From Actinomycetes bacterium (lineage in GTDB: Bacteria > Actinomycetota > Actinomycetes > Streptosporangiales > Streptosporangiaceae), in NCBI GenBank assembly GCA_025964575.1, contig JAOPYO010000195.1:25902-89901 (forward strand): DNA of 64,000 nt, written 5' to 3'. The position numbers were made by a program, and so were the translations under genes. Under the pieces are notes generated by a model, which was not told the DNA's origin, made no database searches, and was given only the letters and a program-made list of their open reading frames with translations. Within the stretch, counting starts at the first letter, position 1, and each line of letters begins with the position of its first letter. Shown here piece by piece: positions 46,239 to 60,780 of the stretch.

Positions 46239-46375
46239 ATGATCGAATTTGCCGACCGGGTGGTGCTCGTGACCGGCGCGGCCCGGGGCATCGGGGCCGC
46301 CACCGCCCGGCTGTTCGCCGCCAGGGGTGCCTCGCTGGCGCTCTGCGACCGCGACTCACCGGCCGAGACCGCCGA
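46239..46375 (+). pseudogene. Truncated SDR N-terminus remnant
   Basis: MIEFADRVVLVTGAARGIGAATARLFAARGASLALCDRDSPAETAD, Rossmann motif only, then non-SDR sequence. Confidence 0.7.
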
Positions 46376-46466
46376 CGCTTGCTTACGGACCTGTGCCTGC
46401 TTACGGGCTTACGGAAAGGACGGGGCTCTGCCGAGGGCGGGCGGAGGCGCATGCGAGGATCGAAGG

Positions 46467-47108: not shown

Positions 47109-47133
47109 AAACGTGCCGACGGAAGGGCGGGGT

Positions 47134-47790
47134 ATGCGGATCGAGGCGGTCTTCTTCGACATCGGAGAGACGCTCATCAACGAGAGCGAGATCTATGGGC
47201 GGTGGGCGGACTGGCTGGGTGTGCCCCGGCACACGTTCCTCACCAAACTCGGCGCCATTCTCGCCACCGGCGGCACGCATCCCGACCTCTTCGAGTACTT
47301 CCGGCCAGGTTTCGACCTTGCCATCGAGGAGAAACGGCGCCAGGAGGCCGGGGTGCCGAACGGCTTCGGTGCCGACGATCTCTATCCGGACGCCCGCGCC
47401 TGCCTCAGTGAACTGCATGCCCAAGGGCTCTTCATCGGTGTCGCGGGCAACCAGCCGGTGGAGGCCGCCGAGCAGTTCGCGGCGCTCGGTCTGGAGGCTG
47501 ATCTCGTGGGGATCTCCGACGTCTGGGGTCTGCAGAAACCGTCCCCGGAGTTCTTCGCCCGTTGTGCCGACGAAGCCGCCCTTGCGCCGGATCGGATCCT
47601 GTACGTGGGGGACCGGATCGACAACGACGTCCGCCCCGCACTGTCGTCCGGCATGCAGGTCGCCTTCCTCAGACGGGGCCCCTGGGGCCATATCCAGCAG
47701 GACGACGAGGTCTTGGCCCGCTGTCGGTTCCGCCTCGACGACCTCGCCGAGCTCCCTGGCCTGGTCGCCGTCCACAACGCCGCCGCCTGA
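47134..47790 (+). CDS. HAD family hydrolase
   Basis: AVFFDIGETLINES, GVAGNQP, LYVGDRIDNDVRPALSSGMQVAFLRRG. Confidence 0.9.
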   Translation: MRIEAVFFDIGETLINESEIYGRWADWLGVPRHTFLTKLGAILATGGTHPDLFEYFRPGFDLAIEEKRRQEAGVPNGFGADDLYPDARACLSELHAQGLFIGVAGNQPVEAAEQFAALGLEADLVGISDVWGLQKPSPEFFARCADEAALAPDRILYVGDRIDNDVRPALSSGMQVAFLRRGPWGHIQQDDEVLARCRFRLDDLAELPGLVAVHNAAA

Positions 47791-48021
47791 TCCCGGTCGC
47801 CCCCGGGGGGTGTGCCTCTGGGATTCCTTGGCCGTGACCACATATACGCGGCCAGTGCGTGTCGGCCGCGTTGGGGTGGCCAGGGCAAAGCTCCCTTAGG
47901 GGATGTCCCCTAGGTCTGGGGTATCAGGGGAAGACCAGCTGTTCGGATGATCCGGAACCGGGTGTCCGTTTCGTAGCGTGGAACACGTAAACGAAAACCG
48001 AACACTCGGGGAGTGAAGGAA

Positions 48022-48225
48022 ATGGCCGGTCTCTACCGCCCGCATCAGGGCCGAATGATCGCAGGGGTGTGCGCTGGGCTGGGCCGCCGGTTCGGGCTCA
48101 GCAGCACGACCGTACGGCTGCTCGCGCTGCTGTCCTGTCTGCTGCCCGGCCCCCAGTTCGTGGTCTACCTGATTCTCTGGGTGATGATGCCCAGCGAGGA
48201 GAAGTACGCCGCGACCCGCTACTGA
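48022..48225 (+). CDS. PspC domain protein
   Basis: LYRPHQGRMIAGVCAGLGRRFGLSSTTVRLLALLSCLLPGPQFVVYLILWVMMP. Confidence 0.9.
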   Translation: MAGLYRPHQGRMIAGVCAGLGRRFGLSSTTVRLLALLSCLLPGPQFVVYLILWVMMPSEEKYAATRY

Positions 48226-49781: not shown

Positions 49782-52700
49782 TCAGGTGGTGCCGGTGCGG
49801 AAGGCTTTCACGGCATAGCGAAGCCGGACGGTCGTCAGCAGTTCCTCCTCAGCGGGGCAGTCCAGGACCGTCCGGGCGTACATGATCAGTTGGTCATCGC
49901 TGAGGGCCTGCCCGCTCTCGGCGAGATCGCGGATCAGATCGAGCAGCTCTGCCCGTTTGTACTCGACGATCGACCGGCCCGGCCGGAGCGGCAGATCCGC
50001 CAGGGGCGGCGTCACCACGCCCGCGGGTTCGGCGGGCGTCTCGAGCGCGGACGCCATGGGCGAGCCTGATCGGACGACCGGGCCGAAGCGCGCCTCGAGC
50101 GCTTCGAACAGGGTCGCTGACGGCCGTACGGCGTCGCGAAGCCCGGCAGGCAGGCTCGCACCGGACTGCTCCGCCGAGAGCTCCGCATCGAACCCGGGCG
50201 GGAATTCCGAGGCGGGCGCGTCCGGGAGATCCACCGAGGTGGAGGCCGCCCCGGAGCCGACGACGATCACGCGTGCGGTAAGCCAGAGCAGGAACAGCGC
50301 CTCCACGGGCTCCCCGGCGCCCTCGTCCACGATCACGACGTCGAAGCAGTCCGCCCGCGGTGGAACCGTCTCGGGGACCTGCCACAGTGGCATCGCCAGC
50401 GCGGGGAGCGCGGCAACGGTCAGAGAGCCTGGGTGAGCGGTCATCCGGGACAGACACCAGCCCCAGGCCTGTTCGGCCGTGAGCCCCGCAGAGATCGCCG
50501 CCTGTCGTTCAGCCGTCTCCTGGAGCGACTCCTCGAACTGGCGCTCCAGCTCCGAACGTGGCCGTTCCCGCAGCGACACGGACGCGTACGCCCAGTTCCA
50601 CGCCTGATCCCACACCTCGAGCCGCCCCGCCCAGACGGCGTCCGCCGGCCGTTCGGCGAGCAGCGAGGCCAGCCGGGGATGGGCGGACCGGACGCGTTCC
50701 AGCAGATCCTCGCAGCGGGCCTGCACCAGTCGCTCCCCATGAGCCTCGGCCAGCGCGGCGACACACCGCGCATAGGCGGCAACGTCCCGGGCCGCGATGG
50801 CCGCGACCGCCTCGGGCAGTTCGGGAGGCCCCGGTCCCTTGCGGACCTCTAGCTCCAGACCGTCCTCGAGTGCCGCCAGCGCCGCGGTGGCCCGGGTGGC
50901 CGCCAGCCGCAGCCGTACGCCGCCCAACGCCGCCGTATAGGCCTGCCACTCGGCCGGACCGCCCAGCGCCACCCGCACGCCCGCACCGAACAGCAATCCC
51001 GCCGTCTCCTCCACGGCCGAGAGTGCCGTACGGACCTGGTTGAGCCGCCGGTAGGCCTCGGCGAACAGCGCGACCGTCGGTGCCAGCGGCAGATCGGAGG
51101 GAAAGGAGACGCCGGCGGCCCGCCATCCGCTCACCAGCTCATGGCAGGCGGCCCGGCCCTCCAGTTCGGCGATCACGATGTCGAGCAGATCGGCAGTGAC
51201 CGGCGCGGCGCCGTCCACCGAGGCCCCGGTGAGGAGGGGCTCGGCGTTCTTCTGTACGGATGGGCGCAGCGGGCCGCGGCGAAGGCCGCCACCCGACGCG
51301 AGATAGTCGCGGAGCTCCCGCGCGGGCGGCAACATGGCCAGCGTCGCGACCGGGGGAAGCGTCAGCCGGCGGTTGCCGATCACGCGCAGTGCCCGGTCCG
51401 CCGCGGCCGCGCGGACGGCGAGATCGGAGACGTGCTCCCAGGCCGAGGTGCGCCGCACCAGTCCGTCGCGCAGGGCCCGCACCGCCCAGTCCGCGGGGTC
51501 CCACTGCTCAGGATCCGCCGGCAGCCCCAGCTCGGTGAAGGCGCTCTCCACCGCTGTCGCGCACGCGTCCAGTCTCCTCAGCGTCGGCGCGTCGCTCTCC
51601 GCGAGCCGCCCGGACAGTTCCGGAGCCGAACGCCTGGCCCGGTCCAGGGCGGTCCGCTCGGTCTCGATCAGCGCCTGGACCCGCTCGACCTCCGGCAACG
51701 CAGCCGGTTCGGGAAGCAACTGGCCGGTACGGGCGGCACGTTCCGGCGTCCGGCCGGCCAGCAGCCCCAGCAGCTCGGCCGCCTCACCGGCGGTCAGCGG
51801 CGGGGTATCCGGCATCAGCTCGTCGAGCGGCAGCCATGAATATGTGCCCGCCTGCTCCGTCACCCGCCGGGTGAGCTCGGCCAGCGTGCCGGTGTAGCCG
51901 GGTGCGAGATCGTACGTCTCCAGCGCCCGCAGCGACTCGACCTGTTCGCGCAGGTCCCTTTCGATGCCCTGCATGGTGGCCAGCCGCGACTCCTGCTCGG
52001 CCAGCACCTGCCGATGCCGTTCCGGGTCGTACGCGGCGAAGCGAGCGGCCAGTGCGGACAGGCTCTGCCGGACCGTCGCGGACGTGGCACAGAGCGGTGC
52101 GACCTCGGCGGGCAGCGCCGCCGTCAGTTCCGCGGCGGCGGAGCCGGTCACCAGCACCCGCCGGCCGCGGGCGAGCAGCGCCACCAGCAGGTCGGCGATG
52201 GACTGTGGGCTGCGATCCGGCACGTAGGCGAGGTTCCGCTGGGCCCGCCCCGTGACGAAGCGGGCAAGACCGGTGGGGACGTCGGCGCCGTGGCCGGTCA
52301 GCTCGGTGAGCATCGCGTCGTAATAGTCGATCACTGCCGTGTGGTCGCGCCTGCGGAGCACGAGCGCCGGCGCCAGCCGTATCTTCGAGGTGGCGCCCAC
52401 CTGATCGTCGGTCCAGTCCTCACGGAACCCGACGGTGCCGTCCTCGAAGGCGAACGCGCACCACTTGCGGAGAACATCGGCCGCCGAGTCCTGCAGACCG
52501 TAACCCTGCCCCGACCGCACCGCGTCGCGGACCCAGTCCGTGCGCGCCGGCCGGAACCCGGCCAGGCCGTCCAGCAGTGCGCGGTCCTGGATGACGGTGG
52601 GCCGGTCGACCAGCAGCACGTCGGCCCGTTCGGTCTGCGGGTCCACGGCCACGTGTACGGGAGTGGCCAGCAGATGGTTGCGCACCCGTACGCCGTCGGC

Positions 52701-53054
52701 GGACTGCCAGGTGAGCAGGCCGACCGCGAGCACCAGCTCGTACTCGTCTCCGGCCCGGTCGGCGAGGGAGCGCAGCGTGCGATACCAACGACGCAACCCG
52801 AGCCAGTCGTCGAACTCCTCCAGCGCAGTCGGGGGGGTGATCGGGATGACCGGAACGCTGAACAGAATGTCGCCGGCGGCCGCGTCGGTCTCCACATAGA
52901 CCGCGCCGGGCAGCTCCGCCAGCCAGTGAACCTGTTCGTAGGCGGCGAGATCCCGGACCGGTTCGCGGCGCACCTGGGCCAGGTGACGGAGGTATCGGAT
53001 CAGCCGAACCGTCGTGTCGAAGGTCGGCTCGTCGTCGGCACCCGGTCGCGGCAC
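49782..53054 (-). CDS. SF1 helicase/AAA-like protein with degenerate ATPase motifs
   Basis: 1090 aa; LVALLARGRRVLVTGSAAAELTAAL and FDVVIVDEGAGEPVEALFLLWLTARVIVVGS resemble SF1 helicase Ia and Walker B contexts; GPPGTGKS replaced by VPDRSPQS. Confidence 0.6.
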   Translation of the reverse strand: MPRPGADDEPTFDTTVRLIRYLRHLAQVRREPVRDLAAYEQVHWLAELPGAVYVETDAAAGDILFSVPVIPITPPTALEEFDDWLGLRRWYRTLRSLADRAGDEYELVLAVGLLTWQSADGVRVRNHLLATPVHVAVDPQTERADVLLVDRPTVIQDRALLDGLAGFRPARTDWVRDAVRSGQGYGLQDSAADVLRKWCAFAFEDGTVGFREDWTDDQVGATSKIRLAPALVLRRRDHTAVIDYYDAMLTELTGHGADVPTGLARFVTGRAQRNLAYVPDRSPQSIADLLVALLARGRRVLVTGSAAAELTAALPAEVAPLCATSATVRQSLSALAARFAAYDPERHRQVLAEQESRLATMQGIERDLREQVESLRALETYDLAPGYTGTLAELTRRVTEQAGTYSWLPLDELMPDTPPLTAGEAAELLGLLAGRTPERAARTGQLLPEPAALPEVERVQALIETERTALDRARRSAPELSGRLAESDAPTLRRLDACATAVESAFTELGLPADPEQWDPADWAVRALRDGLVRRTSAWEHVSDLAVRAAAADRALRVIGNRRLTLPPVATLAMLPPARELRDYLASGGGLRRGPLRPSVQKNAEPLLTGASVDGAAPVTADLLDIVIAELEGRAACHELVSGWRAAGVSFPSDLPLAPTVALFAEAYRRLNQVRTALSAVEETAGLLFGAGVRVALGGPAEWQAYTAALGGVRLRLAATRATAALAALEDGLELEVRKGPGPPELPEAVAAIAARDVAAYARCVAALAEAHGERLVQARCEDLLERVRSAHPRLASLLAERPADAVWAGRLEVWDQAWNWAYASVSLRERPRSELERQFEESLQETAERQAAISAGLTAEQAWGWCLSRMTAHPGSLTVAALPALAMPLWQVPETVPPRADCFDVVIVDEGAGEPVEALFLLWLTARVIVVGSGAASTSVDLPDAPASEFPPGFDAELSAEQSGASLPAGLRDAVRPSATLFEALEARFGPVVRSGSPMASALETPAEPAGVVTPPLADLPLRPGRSIVEYKRAELLDLIRDLAESGQALSDDQLIMYARTVLDCPAEEELLTTVRLRYAVKAFRTGTT

Positions 53055-53296
53055 AGAGAATCCCCCCTCCGCCTCTATTCATCTCACGCGGCAGCCATGT
53101 GCAATAGCGAAATCCGTGTGAAACAGCGCGCAAGTTGGAGGACATACCCACGGGTAGTCATGATCAAGGGAGACGTGCGCCGGTCTGGCCGGGACCGGCC
53201 CAGCCACGCGGCGTGAATTCTGCGTTACGTGTGATTATCTTTCGCCGAGATCCACCGGGACCGGCGAGAAACTGGGAGTTCGCCCCCTATCGGGAG

Positions 53297-53578
53297 ATGT
53301 GGATGATCAGACGTTCACCGTTGTTCGGTCGCAAGACGCGGGTCACCTTCAGCATCGCAGTGGATCAGCCGCCCGGCACGGTCAGCGTCGTCGGTGACTT
53401 CAATGGCTGGGAGCCCGGCCGGCATGAGCTGGTCCGGCGGCGGAACGGCAGGCGCAGCGTCTCGGTGACGCTCACCCCCGGCGTTCACCGGTTCCGTTAC
53501 CTCGGCACCGATGGTCTCTGGTTCGACGAGGACCAAGCGGACCGCATCGACGGCGCGGGCGGCCTCCTCGAGGTCTGA
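53297..53578 (+). CDS. Isoamylase early-set / AMPK-CBM48-like domain protein
   Basis: VTFSIAVDQPPGTVSVVGDFNGWEPGRHELVRR...PGVHRFRYLGTDGLWFDEDQAD. Confidence 0.88.
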   Translation: MWMIRRSPLFGRKTRVTFSIAVDQPPGTVSVVGDFNGWEPGRHELVRRRNGRRSVSVTLTPGVHRFRYLGTDGLWFDEDQADRIDGAGGLLEV

Positions 53579-53804: not shown

Positions 53805-56800
53805 TCAGCCGCCGGGGCGGACCAGCGGGAACGCGATGGTCTCCCGGATGGTCTTGCCGGTGAGGGTGATGAGGAGGCGGTCGATGCCCATGCCCATGCC
53901 GCCCGCGGGGGGCATGGCGTATTCGAGGGCGCGCAGGAAGTCCTCATCCAGTTCCATGGCCTCGGCGTCGCCGCCGGCGGCCAGCAGGGACTGCTCGGTG
54001 AGGCGCTGGCGTTGCAGGATGGGGTCGATCAGCTCGGAGTAAGCGGTGCCGAGTTCCAGACCGAACACGACGAGGTCCCACTTCTCGGCCAGTCGCGGGT
54101 CTTTTCGGTGTGGACGGGTCAGCGGTGAGGTCTCGGCCGGATAATCCCGGACGAACGTCGGGAACATCAGCGTGCTCTCGACCAGGTCCTCGAAGAGCTC
54201 TTGGACGAGCCTGCCCTGCCCCCACTCCGGATCGAACTTCAGCCCGGTCCTGGCGGCGTGCTTCTGCACGATCGGCAGCGGGGTGTCAGGAGTGACGGTC
54301 TCGCCGAGGGCCTGGGACACCGAGCCGTAGACGGTGATCTCGTTCCACGGCTGCGCGAAGTCGTATTCCACGCCGTCGCGGACGACGACCGTTGTGCCCA
54401 GCGCGGCCTCGGCGGCGTCCACCACCAGGGAGCGGGTCAGCGCGGCCATCGTGTCGTAGTTGCCGTAGGGCTCGTAGGCCTCCAGCATCGTGAACTCTGG
54501 GTTGTGGCGCGGGGACACACCTTCGTTGCGGAAGTTGCGGTTGAGCTCGAAGACCTTGCCGACCCCGCCGACCAGCAGCCGCTTGAGATACAGCTCGGGC
54601 GCGATCCGCAGGTACATCTCCATGTTGTACGCGTTGATCTTGGTGGTGAAGGGCCGGGCCGTCGCGCCGCCGTGGATCGGCTGCAGCATCGGCGTCTCGA
54701 CCTCGAGGTAGCCGCGCCCCCGAAGGTTCTCACGGACCGAGGCCACCGCGTTACTGCGCGCCCGGATCATCCGCCGGGAATCGTCGTTGACGATCAGGTC
54801 GACGTACCGCTGCCGGACCCGGGTCTCGTCCGACATTCCGCTGCGCGTGTTGGGCAGCGGCCGCAGGCACTTGGAGGTCAGCGTCCACGACGTTGCCAGA
54901 ACCGACAGCTCACCGGTTCTGGACGTGATCACCTCACCGACCATCCCGACCTGGTCGCCCAGGTCGATGAGCGACTTCCAGGCTCGCAGTGCGTCCTCGC
55001 CGACCTGGTCGGCGGCCAGCATGATCTGCAGCTCGCCGGTCTCGTCCCGCAGCTGTACGAAACAGAGCCGGCCGTGCTCGCGGGCCAGCACCACCCGGCC
55101 CGCGACCCGAACCGTGGTCCCGGTGTGGGTGTCGGGCGCCAGATCACCGAAACGCTCCCGGATGTCCTGGGCGTAGTCGGTGCGGTCGAAGCCGATCGGA
55201 TAGGGCTCGATGCCCGCCGCCCGCAGATCATCCAGCTTGTCGTGCCGCACCCGCTCCTGCTCGGACAGCCGTCGCTGCGGAGTCCTGGCCGCGTCCACCG
55301 TCTCTTCCATCGCCTCGATGTCCGCGATGAGCTGTGACGACGGGGCGGCCATGGCGGCCAGCTTGGGCTTCTCGAGCGTGGGCAGGTAGCCCTCGGCGCG
55401 GGCGGCGGCCAGCGCGATCCGGATCACGTCACGGGACTGGGCGAAGCAGACGAAGCGCGGCAGCCAGATCGGTTGGTACTTGGCGTTGGCCAGATAGAGC
55501 GACTCGAGCTGCCAGAACTTCGACGCGAGCGACAAGAAGCTGTACGCCAGCCGCAGGATCGGGCCCGCGCCGATCTGCGAGCCCCGCTCGAACACCGAGC
55601 GCAGCACCGCGAAGTTCAACGACAGCCGGGTGACTCCGACCAGGGCGGCGTTCTCGGCCAGCTTGGCGACCATGAACTCGTTCAGGCCGTTCTCCGCTGT
55701 CCGGTCCCTCCGCATCAGATCCAGCGAAAGGCCGGTCCGGCCCCACGGCACGAAACTCAACAGCCCCCGCAGGGCACCCGAAGCGTCGAATGCCTCAACC
55801 ATCACGCACCGGCCGTCCGCCGGGTCACCCAGCCGGCTCAGCGCCATTGAGAAGCCGCGCTCGGTCGCGCCGTCCCGCCACCGGTCGGCGTGCGCGATCA
55901 GGTCGGCCATCTCCTCCGGCGGGATCTGGCTGTGCCGCCGGACTCGCACGGTGTAGCCGGCACGGTCGATCCGCCGTACGGCCTGGCGCACCTGCCGCAT
56001 CTCCCGGCCGTCCAGGTTGAACTCGCTCAGTTCCAGGATGGCCTCGTCGCCCAGTTCCAGGGCGTCCATGCCATGCCGTCTGTAGGCCGTCGCGCCGCGT
56101 TCCCCGACGCTCATCACCCCGGGGATCCAGGCGTGGGCGTAGCACTCGGCCAGCCAGGCCTCGATCGCGCCGTCCCAGGCCTCCGGATCGCCGAGCGGGT
56201 CACCGCTGGCCAGGCAGACCGACCCGTCCACCCGGTACGCGATCGCGGCCCTGCCGTTCGGCGCCACGATGACGTCCTTGTCCCGGCGCAGCGCGAAATA
56301 GCCCAGAGAGTCGTTCTCGCCGTACTCCGCCAGTAGCGCGCGGGCCGGAAGTTCCTCCTCCGGGGTCAGCACCGCCTCGCCACGAGCGGGACGGAACAGT
56401 GCCCACACGGTCACGAGCAGGAGCACGCTGCCCATCAAGCCCAGGCTGAAGTCCACCCACGTCGGCACCGAGACGTCGATCGGCTTGCCCTTTATCCCGG
56501 CGCCGACCAGGGTCTGCAGCGCCACATAGGTCGGGTGCGTCCAGAAGTCGCCCTTCGGATTGGTGTCGCCGATGGTGACGATGACGGTGCCGATGATCCC
56601 GTTGATGAGGAGCAGGCCGGTGAAGACCAGCAGCGCCAGCCGGCGGTTGGCCCGGTCGGGCAGCGTGGAGAACTCGCCGCGGCCGACGATCAGCAGCACC
56701 AGCGCGGAGCCGTAACCGATGAACGCGATCCATTCACCCGTGCCGCCGAACTGCGTGACTCCGACCATGGTGACGAGCGTGTAGAAGCCGAAGAGCATGA

Positions 56801-57065
56801 CCAGGATGCGCCATGCGGCCTTCTTACGCCGTCGTACGCCCATGGAGAGGAGCACGAGGAACAGACCGTAAGGCAGACTGGGGGACGAACCGAGGTAGTT
56901 GATCCAGTGCAGCAGCCAGACGCCCTCGATCTCTTCGATGATCTCCGAGGACATCCAGGTGAGAATTGACACGATCCCGGACAGCCGGACATACCAAAAA
57001 AAGATGGTCGGCACGGCCTTGATCAGGCGCTGCCATGCGTCAGACAGTCCGCGCTGTGTCTTCAT
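53805..57065 (-). CDS. lysX: Bifunctional lysylphosphatidylglycerol synthetase / lysine--tRNA ligase
   Basis: 1086 aa; N-terminal MprF-like TM and DUF2156 region fused to class II LysRS ([49 protein letters not shown]). Confidence 0.95.
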
Positions 57066-57226: not shown

Positions 57227-58996
57227 ATGCCAAATGAGTCGACTCCGGGCGATCCCACGCCCGGCCCCGAGGTAACGCGTGACGATGGGGGTCGACTGCT
57301 CGCCCGACGATATCGGCTGGGCGCTCAGGTGGGCCGGGGCGGTATGGGCACGGTCTGGCAAGCCTATGACGAGGTCCTCGGTCGTGACGTCGCCGTCAAA
57401 GAGGTCATTTTTCCGTACGGACTGACCGACGACGAGCGGGACACCCAGTACAAACGCACTTTCCGTGAGGCTCGCACGGCCGCCAGGCTGGGACATCCCG
57501 GAGTGGTGACGGTCTACGACGTGGTCGAGGAGGACGGCCGCCCGTGGATCATCATGGAGCTGATCCGGGCCCGTTCGCTGGACCAGGTGATCAAAAAAGA
57601 CGGACCGCTGCACTGGCGCCGTGCCGCCGACGTCGGCCGGCAGATGCTCGGAGCCCTGCACGCCGCGCACGAGGCCGGAGTCCTGCACCGGGACGTGAAG
57701 CCCAGCAACGTGCTGCTGGCCCCGGGTGATCGGGCGGTGCTCACCGACTTCGGCATCGCCACCTCGGTGGGCGACACCACCCTCACGACCACCGGACTGG
57801 TGATGGGCTCGCCCGCCTACATCGCGCCGGAGCGGGCCCGTGGCCGCCCCACCGGTCCCGCCTCGGACCTCTGGTCGCTGGGCGTGGCGATCTATGCGAT
57901 GGTCGATGGGAAGTCGCCGTTCGAGCGGGTCGAGCCGATGGCCTCGCTGGTTGCGATCATCTCGGACGACCCTGCGTGGACGGCGTCCGCCGGCCCGTTG
58001 TGGCCGGTGATCGAAGGACTCCTCCACAAGGACCCCGACCAGCGGATGACGGCGCACCAGGCCGGGCTGGTGCTGGACGACATCGTCCGCCGCGATTCGG
58101 TCGAGGACAAGGGCACCCTGCGGATTCCGGTGTCCCCTCAGCCCAAGCAGAGCATCCCTCCGGAAGCCGGCGAGTTCGATCCCTCGCAGGAGCAACCGAC
58201 CTCGGTGGAAAATCGTCCCACCCGGCTGAAGAAGCTCTCCGCCAAGAGGCAGCTCCGTGCGGAGGAACGACCTGTCGCCATGGCGGAGCAGGCTCCGCTC
58301 ACCAGTGCCAGCCCCGTCAGCGAGCGCACGGCCCCCGCGGTGGACCCGTCAGGTCCGCCCGGCCGCACGCGGTTGCTGTGGGCGGCCGCGGTGCTGGTCG
58401 CCGTGCTCGGGCTCGGCTGGGCCGTCTACGCGCTCTCATCGGGTGACCACAAGACCACTGCCAAACCGCCCGGGAAACCGACGACGGGCGCGACCGCGAG
58501 CGTCACCCCCTCGCCGACGCCGACGCCGACCACTGTCCCGGCCGGGTTCAAGATCTACAAGGGCGACGGCTTCACCACCGCGGTCCCTGCCGACTGGGAT
58601 GGACCCAAGAAGTGGGACAGCCCGGGGGAGTTCTTCTTCAACGGCTCCGATAGGAGCACCCGGCTCATCTTCCGGAAGCTGGCCGACACCACCGACAGCG
58701 CCCTGGACGTCATGAAGAGCAGGCAGGGCGAGGCGCTGGCCGGAAAGGGCGGCTACACACCCCCCGTGATAGGCCCGGCGACCGGACCCGGCGCGGACCC
58801 CACCGGGACCGGGACCAAGGCCGCAGACCTGGTGTACGAGTGGAGATCCGACAGCGGCAAGAAGCACATACTCGAACGCACCGTGGTGATGAACGGTCAC
58901 GCGTACGCCATCACGTTGCAACTCTCCGCCGACTCCTGGCAATCGGACCTCCAGCATCTGGCACCGGTCTTGTCGAACTTCACCCCCACCCCCTGA
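57227..58996 (+). CDS. Serine/threonine protein kinase, paralog 1
   Basis: GRGGMGTVWQAYDEVLGRDVAVKEV, HRDVKPSNVLL, DFGIA, TM helix plus C-terminal sensor-like domain. Confidence 0.95.
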   Translation: MPNESTPGDPTPGPEVTRDDGGRLLARRYRLGAQVGRGGMGTVWQAYDEVLGRDVAVKEVIFPYGLTDDERDTQYKRTFREARTAARLGHPGVVTVYDVVEEDGRPWIIMELIRARSLDQVIKKDGPLHWRRAADVGRQMLGALHAAHEAGVLHRDVKPSNVLLAPGDRAVLTDFGIATSVGDTTLTTTGLVMGSPAYIAPERARGRPTGPASDLWSLGVAIYAMVDGKSPFERVEPMASLVAIISDDPAWTASAGPLWPVIEGLLHKDPDQRMTAHQAGLVLDDIVRRDSVEDKGTLRIPVSPQPKQSIPPEAGEFDPSQEQPTSVENRPTRLKKLSAKRQLRAEERPVAMAEQAPLTSASPVSERTAPAVDPSGPPGRTRLLWAAAVLVAVLGLGWAVYALSSGDHKTTAKPPGKPTTGATASVTPSPTPTPTTVPAGFKIYKGDGFTTAVPADWDGPKKWDSPGEFFFNGSDRSTRLIFRKLADTTDSALDVMKSRQGEALAGKGGYTPPVIGPATGPGADPTGTGTKAADLVYEWRSDSGKKHILERTVVMNGHAYAITLQLSADSWQSDLQHLAPVLSNFTPTP

Positions 58997-59003
58997 CCCA
59001 CTC

Positions 59004-59044
59004 CGTGATCATGTAATCGTTCGACGATGAGTTGCATGATCACG
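59004..59044. repeat. Palindromic repeat copy 4
   Basis: CGTGATCATGTAATC...GTTGCATGATCACG, 7 nt after stop at 58996. Confidence 0.85.
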
Positions 59045-59079
59045 CTGTGCGAGGGGATCTGTCCGGTGTGTAATGCGAG

Positions 59080-60780
59080 TTGGTGGGGTCCTGTTTGCTT
59101 GACGGAGGAGTAGGTCGGGTGCTGGCCGGGAGGTATCGGTTGCTGACCCGCGTGGGCCGGGGCGGTATGGGAACTGTCTGGCACGCTCGCGACGAGGTGC
59201 TCGACCGGGACGTGGCGGTCAAGGAAGTACTGGTGCACCCGGGTCTCGGCGACGCCGAACGCGACGTGCTCCAGGAGCGCACCAAGCGGGAGGCCCGGGC
59301 CACCGCCCGGCTGAGCCATCCCAGCGTGGTGACGGTCTATGACGTCGTCGAGGAGGACGGTCGCCCGTGGATCATCATGGAGCTGATCCGGGCTCGTTCC
59401 CTGGACCAAGTGATCAAGAAGGACGGCCCGCTGCCCTGGCGCCGGGCGGCCGAGGTGGGCAGGCAACTGCTCAGTGCCCTGAGCGCCGCGCATGAGGCGG
59501 GGGTGCTGCACCGGGACGTGAAGCCCAGCAACGTGCTGCTGGCGGCCGGGGAGCGGGCCGTGCTCACCGACTTCGGGATCGCCACCTCGGCGGGCGACGC
59601 GACCCTGACCACCACCGGACTGGTGATGGGGTCGCCGGCCTATCTCGCGCCGGAGCGGGCCCGCGGCCATCCCGTGGGTCCGGCCTCCGATCTATGGTCG
59701 CTGGGCGTGACCCTCTACGCGATGGTGGACGGGAAGTCACCGTTCGAGCGGACGGAGCCGATGGCCTCCCTGGTGGCGGTCATCTCGGACGATCCGGTGC
59801 GAACCGCGTCCGCGGGACCTTTGTGGCCGTTGATCGAAGGATTGCTGCATAAGGACCCGGACCAGCGGATGACACCACTGGAAGCCGGTTTGGTGATCGA
59901 CCGGCTTCTGCGCGGCGACCTCGAGGAGGCCGGCGGCACCCTCCCGGTGCCGATCCCGCCGCCGCGCTCCGTCCTCGCCGATCAGCCCACCCGCGAGAGG
60001 CCCGCGGATCTCTCCGGCCACCCGGCAGGCCCGGCCGAGGCCACCACGGACCCGGCCGACGCGCCCGCCGGGCCGACCGATGCCGTGATGGCACAGCACC
60101 TTGGTGAACCCACTGTGCGGTCGGCCGCGCGCCCAGCCCAGGGACGACTGCTGTGGACAGGGGTGGCGCTGGTCGCCGCCCTGGCCCTCGGCGGGCTCGT
60201 CGTCGCTCTGAACTGGCAGCACGGCGGTGAGAAGCCCGTCTCCGCCCCCGGCTCCCCGAAGACTTCCGCGGGGACACCGACGAGTGCCACGGCCACGGCC
60301 AAGCCGTCAGCAGCGACCCTTGTCGGGTTCAGGACCTACAAGGACTCGACCGGTTACTCCATCGCCGTCCCCAAGAGCTGGGCCGGCCCGCAGCACAAGA
60401 ACGGCGGAGACTTCTTCTACTCTCCGGACCACAACACTTATGTGCAGATCGACCAGACCTCCCATCCCGACCCCAGCGCGCTGAAGGACTGGCAGGACCA
60501 GGAGCCCAGCGTGGCCGGGCGGTTCGCGGGCTATCACCGGCTCCGGCTCGATCCGGTCGCCCAGGGTGCCCCGGTCGCCGATTCCTCCGGCAAGAAGGCT
60601 TCGGACTGGGAGTACACCTGGCAGGCCGGCACCGGCAAGAAGCACGTGCTCAGTCGCGGTTTCATCATGAACGGCCACGGCTACGCCATCGTGATCTCCG
60701 CGCCGGACGGTGAGTGGGAGAAGACCCGAACGGAACTCGCTCCCGTCTTCGATCATTTTGTTCCGGCGTCCCCGCCCTGA
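59080..60780 (+). CDS. Serine/threonine protein kinase, paralog 2
   Basis: GRGGMGTVWHARDEVLDRDVAVKEV, HRDVKPSNVLLA, TM plus C-terminal domain; start may be slightly later. Confidence 0.95.
   Translation: MVGSCLLDGGVGRVLAGRYRLLTRVGRGGMGTVWHARDEVLDRDVAVKEVLVHPGLGDAERDVLQERTKREARATARLSHPSVVTVYDVVEEDGRPWIIMELIRARSLDQVIKKDGPLPWRRAAEVGRQLLSALSAAHEAGVLHRDVKPSNVLLAAGERAVLTDFGIATSAGDATLTTTGLVMGSPAYLAPERARGHPVGPASDLWSLGVTLYAMVDGKSPFERTEPMASLVAVISDDPVRTASAGPLWPLIEGLLHKDPDQRMTPLEAGLVIDRLLRGDLEEAGGTLPVPIPPPRSVLADQPTRERPADLSGHPAGPAEATTDPADAPAGPTDAVMAQHLGEPTVRSAARPAQGRLLWTGVALVAALALGGLVVALNWQHGGEKPVSAPGSPKTSAGTPTSATATAKPSAATLVGFRTYKDSTGYSIAVPKSWAGPQHKNGGDFFYSPDHNTYVQIDQTSHPDPSALKDWQDQEPSVAGRFAGYHRLRLDPVAQGAPVADSSGKKASDWEYTWQAGTGKKHVLSRGFIMNGHGYAIVISAPDGEWEKTRTELAPVFDHFVPASPP

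What the first reader, a model, noticed from the sequence alone, without database searches (positions are those of the whole stretch)
49782..53054. 1090-aa helicase-like pseudo-ATPase lacking Walker A
Seen: the context NLAYVPDRSPQSIADLLVALLARGRRVLVTG resembles the SF1 pattern GPPGTGK[ST]xTIxxLxxxLLARGxRVLVT, but the P-loop is VPDRSPQS with no GKS/T. The Walker B region is VVIVDEGAGEPVEALFLLW rather than DEASQ. Later helicase motifs (III to VI) are not obvious before a short C-terminal wHTH-like tail. Inference: an ATPase-dead, truncated member of large actinobacterial SF1 helicases, some relatives of which occur in anti-phage systems, kept as a long intact ORF.
Basis: partly seen in the sequence, partly recalled or inferred. 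Interest (0 to 1): 0.7.

Follow-up and report, generated by a model that had tools for sequence, protein, structure and literature searches.

The report
Hollowed-out helicase kept as core gene
A large protein descended from a DNA-unwinding and DNA-cutting enzyme has lost the parts that burn ATP and cut DNA, yet actinobacteria of the Actinomadura group keep it intact, one copy per genome and always at the same chromosomal spot, so it has probably been recruited for a new, non-enzymatic job.

Summary
The 1090-aa protein has no Walker A and no motifs III-VI. It is homologous (39-49% identity) to intact 1490-1830-aa actinobacterial helicase-nucleases (AAA_11/AAA_12 plus a MTES_1575 nuclease). These are distant relatives of the anti-phage candidates PDC-S37, Hhe and ProA. 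Compared with them, the protein has lost about 35 aa at the P-loop, motifs III-VI and the nuclease. It keeps the N-terminal domain, the RecA1 strands, the helical insert and, after a Pro-rich linker, a tail homologous to one found after the nuclease in some intact relatives. It is therefore hollowed out rather than simply truncated. I found 27 distinct copies without a P-loop. Fifteen tested in a tree form one clade nested inside the intact family. All 13 genomes sampled from the Actinomadura/Spirillospora genus carry exactly one copy, without any intact paralogue. The gene sits in a fixed slot (HAD-PspC-[gene]-LysX-two kinases) and is under purifying selection (dN/dS 0.32). A decaying pseudogene is excluded, and a defence-island gene or a decoy for a paralogue is unlikely. 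The best reading is a vertically inherited pseudohelicase acting as an ATP-independent scaffold or adaptor. What it binds is unknown.

The parts
49782..53054 (-). Pseudohelicase gene, 1090 aa, GTG start; SF1 helicase-nuclease derivative without Walker A, motifs III-VI or nuclease
52350..53054 (-). N-terminal part (aa 1-235): helix plus beta-rich domain shared with the intact helicases; the most conserved part within the short clade (62-71% mean identity); no PDB fold match
52080..52211 (-). RecA1 remnant (aa 282-325): strand/helix and RVLVTG (motif Ia side); about 35 aa with the Q motif and GPPGTGKT deleted just upstream
50415..52079 (-). Large helical insert between RecA1 strands (aa 326-880), present in both short and intact forms
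50250..50414 (-). Motif II region (aa 881-935): FDVVIVDEGAGEPVEALFLLW in place of FDVVIVDEASQ...; Walker B Asp kept; Glu kept only in a few copies; no GDDKQ after it
49986..50249 (-). Low-confidence Pro-rich linker (aa 936-1023) replacing RecA2 and nuclease; about 650 aa in A. madurae and K4S16; dN/dS about 0.7
49785..49985 (-). Conserved three-helix tail (aa 1024-1090), GRSIVEYKRAELLDLIRDLAE...; homologous to a tail after the nuclease in Actinopolymorpha intact forms; dN/dS 0.20
47113..47790 (+). HAD-family hydrolase, conserved neighbour of the slot
47977..48222 (+). PspC-domain small membrane protein frame; directly upstream of the short gene in Actinomadura, Spirillospora and Actinocorallia
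53805..57065 (-). LysX-like lysyl-tRNA synthetase fusion, other border of the conserved slot

Best explanation
The gene is a vertically inherited pseudohelicase. An ancestral actinobacterial SF1 helicase-nuclease lost its nucleotide-binding loop, its second motor domain (motifs III-VI) and its nuclease, but kept the N-terminal domain, the shell of the first RecA domain, the long helical insert and the C-terminal tail. It was fixed as a single-copy gene in the Actinomadura/Spirillospora/Actinocorallia lineage and in the window's genus. Shown: homology, monophyly, the deletions, conservation and selection. Inferred: it works without ATP as a scaffold or adaptor, the folded helicase shell and helical arm holding one partner (protein, or possibly nucleic acid) and the three-helix tail on a flexible Pro-rich tether holding another. 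Its role is a housekeeping one rather than being tied to an intact paralogue. I put the identity part at about 0.95, ATP-independence at about 0.9 and the scaffold/adaptor role at about 0.55.
For: Homology to intact P-loop forms. Of 80 named relatives, 64 carry GPPGTGKT in the main reading frame and 15 lack both GPPGTGKT and DEASQ; the other, L111, is an artefact of masked stretches that has the P-loop in another frame. Fourteen of the 15 (all but the frameshifted L058) plus the window protein form one clade, SH-aLRT 100, inside the intact family. No Walker A, GDDKQ or nuclease signature in 27 distinct copies. One copy tolerates a ~570-aa low-complexity insert exactly at the old P-loop site. 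dN/dS is 0.32 overall and 0.18-0.20 in the beta domain and tail, against 0.12 for LysX and 0.19 for TetR. Constraint has moved: mean identity in the short clade is higher than in intact relatives in the N-terminal part (0.66 vs 0.54) but lower around the P-loop (0.42 vs 0.71) and motif II (0.67 vs 0.90). 13 of 13 genomes of one genus hold exactly one copy and no intact paralogue. Same chromosomal slot in all short copies examined with enough flank. Tail retained although the region before it is gone.
Against: No partner, phenotype or expression data. Foldseek found no significant PDB match for the whole model or the N-terminal part, so RecA1 topology rests on homology and strand order, and pTM is only 0.52. 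A few copies, the window's included, keep the motif II Glu. The gene differs in orientation and immediate neighbours between clades, so no operon partner is fixed except nearness to PspC. The two clades compared for constraint differ in age. Actinocorallia sp. API 0066 lacks the conserved tail.
Confidence: 0.6

Rival explanations
1. RecC/AddB-like role: a dead helicase subunit that scans or grips DNA inside a complex with a separate active helicase or nuclease.
For: Direct precedent: inactivated SF1 domains of RecC and AddB keep the helicase topology, lack the motifs and recognise Chi (PMC4824097). The DNA-linked ancestor kept its N-terminal domain and tail.
Against: RecA2 is gone, so half of the ssDNA track used by RecC and AddB is missing. 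Motif Ia residues are not conserved. The window protein is acidic (pI 5.0), with no region of clear K+R excess. No helicase or nuclease gene in the slot.
Confidence: 0.2
2. Decoy or dominant-negative regulator of the intact helicase-nuclease paralogue.
For: The window's close relative G001 and G017 hold both forms.
Against: The window genome has only the short form and no MTES_1575 nuclease. All 13 genomes of the Actinomadura/Spirillospora genus have only the short form at E<=1e-10.
Confidence: 0.05
3. Anti-phage protein: an ATP-independent sensor or effector that keeps the defence role of its ancestors.
For: Intact relatives match PDC-S37, Hhe and MkoA in PADLOC and ProA and Hhe in NCBIfam.
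Against: Those NCBIfam scores are far below cut-off. The short forms match no defence profile. Single-copy, syntenic and universal in a genus, unlike patchy defence genes. Effector (nuclease) and motor are both lost.
Confidence: 0.12
4. A decaying pseudogene of a lost helicase.
For: Internal deletions of catalytic parts; one frameshifted copy (L058) in Actinomadura sp. J1-007.
Against: 27 distinct copies have open frames over long divergence; dN/dS 0.32; 13 of 13 genomes in one genus; conserved tail.
Confidence: 0.03

Closest known systems
Actinobacterial SF1 helicase with AAA_11/AAA_12 and MTES_1575 (Vsr-like) endonuclease; PADLOC candidate PDC-S37, relatives Hhe and ProA
   Same: Homologous over nearly the whole length: N-terminal domain, RecA1, helical insert, and a tail in some members
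   Different: The window protein lacks Walker A, motifs III-VI and the nuclease, and is a syntenic single-copy gene
Inactivated helicase domains of RecC and AddB
   Same: SF1-derived, lacking the motifs needed for translocation, retained as a structural or recognition module (PMC4824097)
   Different: A different SF1 branch; RecA2 lost here; no known helicase partner
Pseudohelicases Utp25 (PMC9539457) and Deinococcus radiodurans PriA (PMC4504706)
   Same: Helicase relatives described as pseudohelicases
   Different: Unrelated sequence families. Only titles and abstract starts were read here
HEPN/transglutaminase/SF1 helicase/Vsr REase/wHTH giant proteins (MTES_1575 type; PMC3710099)
   Same: Same helicase plus Vsr-type nuclease plus C-terminal module logic in the ancestors
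   Different: No HEPN or transglutaminase domain was reported by Pfam for the intact relatives scanned; nuclease absent in the window protein

Membership tests
Functional SF1 helicase (AAA_11/AAA_12) | Walker A GxxxxGK[ST] | tested here: not met
   absent in the window protein and all 27 distinct copies
Functional SF1 helicase (AAA_11/AAA_12) | Motif II DE(A/S)xQ and motif III GDDKQ | tested here: not met
   DEGAGE, DGEHGA or similar instead; no GDDKQ
Functional SF1 helicase (AAA_11/AAA_12) | RecA2 with motifs IV-VI | tested here: not met
   region replaced by linker; no AAA_12 match
SF1 helicase-nuclease lineage (descent) | Significant homology to, and nesting inside, the intact family | tested here: met
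   E down to 1e-147; tree
PDC-S37 / Hhe / ProA anti-phage proteins | Match to the family profile | tested here: not met
   no PADLOC or NCBIfam match for the window protein
Pseudohelicase (helicase homologue without ATPase) | Helicase homology with catalytic motifs lost and the gene under selection | tested here: met
Pseudohelicase (helicase homologue without ATPase) | No ATPase activity | not testable with these tools
   needs biochemistry
RecC/AddB-type dead helicase subunit | Complex with an active helicase-nuclease | not testable with these tools
   no candidate gene in the slot

The most novel reading that the evidence does not exclude
A helicase-nuclease from a lineage related to anti-phage proteins was domesticated: its motor and nuclease were excised while both ends of the protein were kept, and it became an essential or near-essential, ATP-independent core component of Actinomadura-type actinobacteria, with an unprecedented function.
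Probability: 0.35. Interest if true: 0.7.

Novelty: new variant of a known kind. Interest (0 to 1): 0.52.

Why it matters
It is a clear case of a helicase-nuclease, from a lineage related to candidate anti-phage proteins, turned into a fixed, catalytically dead core gene. It matches no family scanned (Pfam, NCBIfam, PADLOC). Genus-wide conservation, single copy and a fixed locus make a knock-out and pull-down directly informative. It also warns that profile-based annotation sees nothing in such derived proteins.

Tried and rejected
Profile scans of the window protein alone found nothing (Pfam, NCBIfam, PADLOC, PHROGs, PDB sequences). A single-sequence scan of genome contigs found no relatives; the alignment-based scan did. 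Foldseek on the full model returned only coiled-coil look-alikes, and on aa 1-345 nothing. L111, which seemed to be a helicase without a P-loop in Frankia, is an artefact of masked N runs: the P-loop lies in another frame. The tail has no Pfam match. An intact paralogue in the window genome was sought and not found; one other AAA_12 frame, on C187, was not identified further and did not match the window protein. Whether the slot exists empty in relatives without the gene could not be settled: G002's contig ends too early. Several larger genome-search runs failed on the server.

Full report
What is there. The ORF at 49782-53054 lies on the minus strand, starts at GTG 53054 and encodes 1090 aa. 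A GGAGG-type ribosome site precedes the start. Alone it matches nothing: Pfam, NCBIfam, PADLOC, PHROGs and PDB sequences gave no significant hit.

Relatives. A whole-genome search of 100 related genomes found two size classes. The first is about the same size as the window protein, with 80% (G001) and 48-49% (G039, G017) identity. The second is 1490-1800 aa, with 43-48% identity over aa 283-876 for most members. The large class has GPPGTGKTHxIANLLxALLAQGQRVLVTS, DEASQ, GDDKQ and the later motifs. Pfam sees AAA_11, AAA_12, a MTES_1575 endonuclease and, in one of the two scanned, an Lsr2-type DNA-binding tail. PADLOC gives PDC-S37, MkoA/C and Hhe, and NCBIfam gives ProA and Hhe far below cut-off. 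So the large class is related to, but not shown to be a member of, those anti-phage families.

The short class. An alignment-based scan gave 80 named loci. Sixty-four have the P-loop in the main frame and 15 lack both GPPGTGKT and DEASQ; L111 is an artefact. The 15 come from Actinomadura, Actinocorallia, Spirillospora albida and a Streptosporangiaceae MAG. With further genomes there are 27 distinct copies, all without Walker A, GDDKQ or the nuclease signature. The deletion at the P-loop is about 35 aa. In G142 a ~570-aa low-complexity stretch sits exactly there. After motif II the protein runs into a Pro-rich linker, about 90 aa in the window and about 650 aa in A. madurae and K4S16. It then ends in a conserved ~65-aa tail. 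That tail is homologous to one following the nuclease in Actinopolymorpha intact forms (E 2.6e-7 in a nine-sequence search). The gene is therefore hollowed out rather than simply cut short.

Evolution. In a tree of 43 proteins the 15 short forms included (the window protein and 14 of the named loci, the frameshifted L058 left out) make one clade (SH-aLRT 100). It lies inside a group with Streptosporangiaceae and Actinopolymorpha intact forms (99), and nearest to L037, L043 and L057 (90). This used a quick tree with midpoint rooting. dN/dS between the window and RYN_225 is 0.32 overall, 0.18 in the beta domain, 0.20 in the tail and about 0.7 in the linker. Mean identity within the short clade is higher than within intact relatives in the N-terminal part and lower in the ATPase remnants, as expected if constraint moved away from catalysis.

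Genomic place. All short copies with enough flank lie in one slot: DUF/APH/MBL/HAD-PspC-[gene]-LysX-two Ser/Thr kinases, with some members of the block missing or out of range in some genomes. None of nine intact copies tested lies there. The gene's orientation and the TetR/NAD-binding neighbours differ in the window clade, so an operon is not implied. Thirteen of 13 genomes of genus g39 and 3 of 3 of g17 have it; g39 has exactly one copy and no intact paralogue at E<=1e-10. The window genome has no intact paralogue and no MTES_1575 domain, though it is only 94% complete.

Structure. AF2 gave mean pLDDT 85.9 and pTM 0.52. Strands at 275-278, 300-303, 322-324, 885-888, 906-910 and 928-932 fall where the intact proteins have VVVQG, RVLVTS, LCVS, AWIMP, DVVIVD and VIVVGD. 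The RecA1 shell is thus likely intact around the missing P-loop. Foldseek gave no significant PDB match, and the N-terminal part alone had none either. RecA1 is therefore supported by homology and strand order, not by an independent fold match.

Mechanism. Shown: descent, loss of catalytic parts, conservation and fixed location. Inferred: no ATP use, and a scaffold or adaptor role with a folded shell, a helical arm and a tethered tail. The nearest precedent for how such a protein can work is the dead helicase domains of RecC and AddB (PMC4824097). Pseudohelicases Utp25 and D. radiodurans PriA are other cases. The acidic composition and the loss of RecA2 speak against a plain DNA-scanning copy of RecC. 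A decoy role needs a paralogue that most genomes lack. A defence role is possible but not supported by location or distribution.

Verdict. The added facts are the strand, the family-wide conservation, the retained tail, the fixed core locus and the absence of an intact partner.

Noticed in passing
window 46239-46460 (+): N-terminal ~60 aa of a short-chain dehydrogenase read in frame into the MBL-fold hydrolase ORF; looks like an SDR remnant.
   Followed up: no
window 53135-53578 (+): Small ORF with a stand-alone AMPK1_CBM-like domain (E 1.4e-5, just under the Pfam cut-off), divergent from the pseudohelicase gene; conserved in RYN_225 only among the loci tested.
   Followed up: partly
window 57227-60780 (+): Two tandem Ser/Thr kinases next to LysX, conserved at the same slot in Actinomadura.
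   Followed up: partly
L118:3545-8548: G142 copy has a ~570-aa Gly/Pro/Ala-rich low-complexity insertion exactly where the P-loop was lost.
   Followed up: yes
L058:9491-13239: Actinomadura sp. J1-007 copy is split by a frameshift (sequencing error or pseudogene).
   Followed up: no
L035:9953-13564: Actinocorallia sp. API 0066 copy lacks the conserved tail and ends in a Thr/Pro-rich stretch.
   Followed up: no
L031:8688-9874: G029 carries a broken remnant of an intact-type helicase gene in two frames.
   Followed up: no
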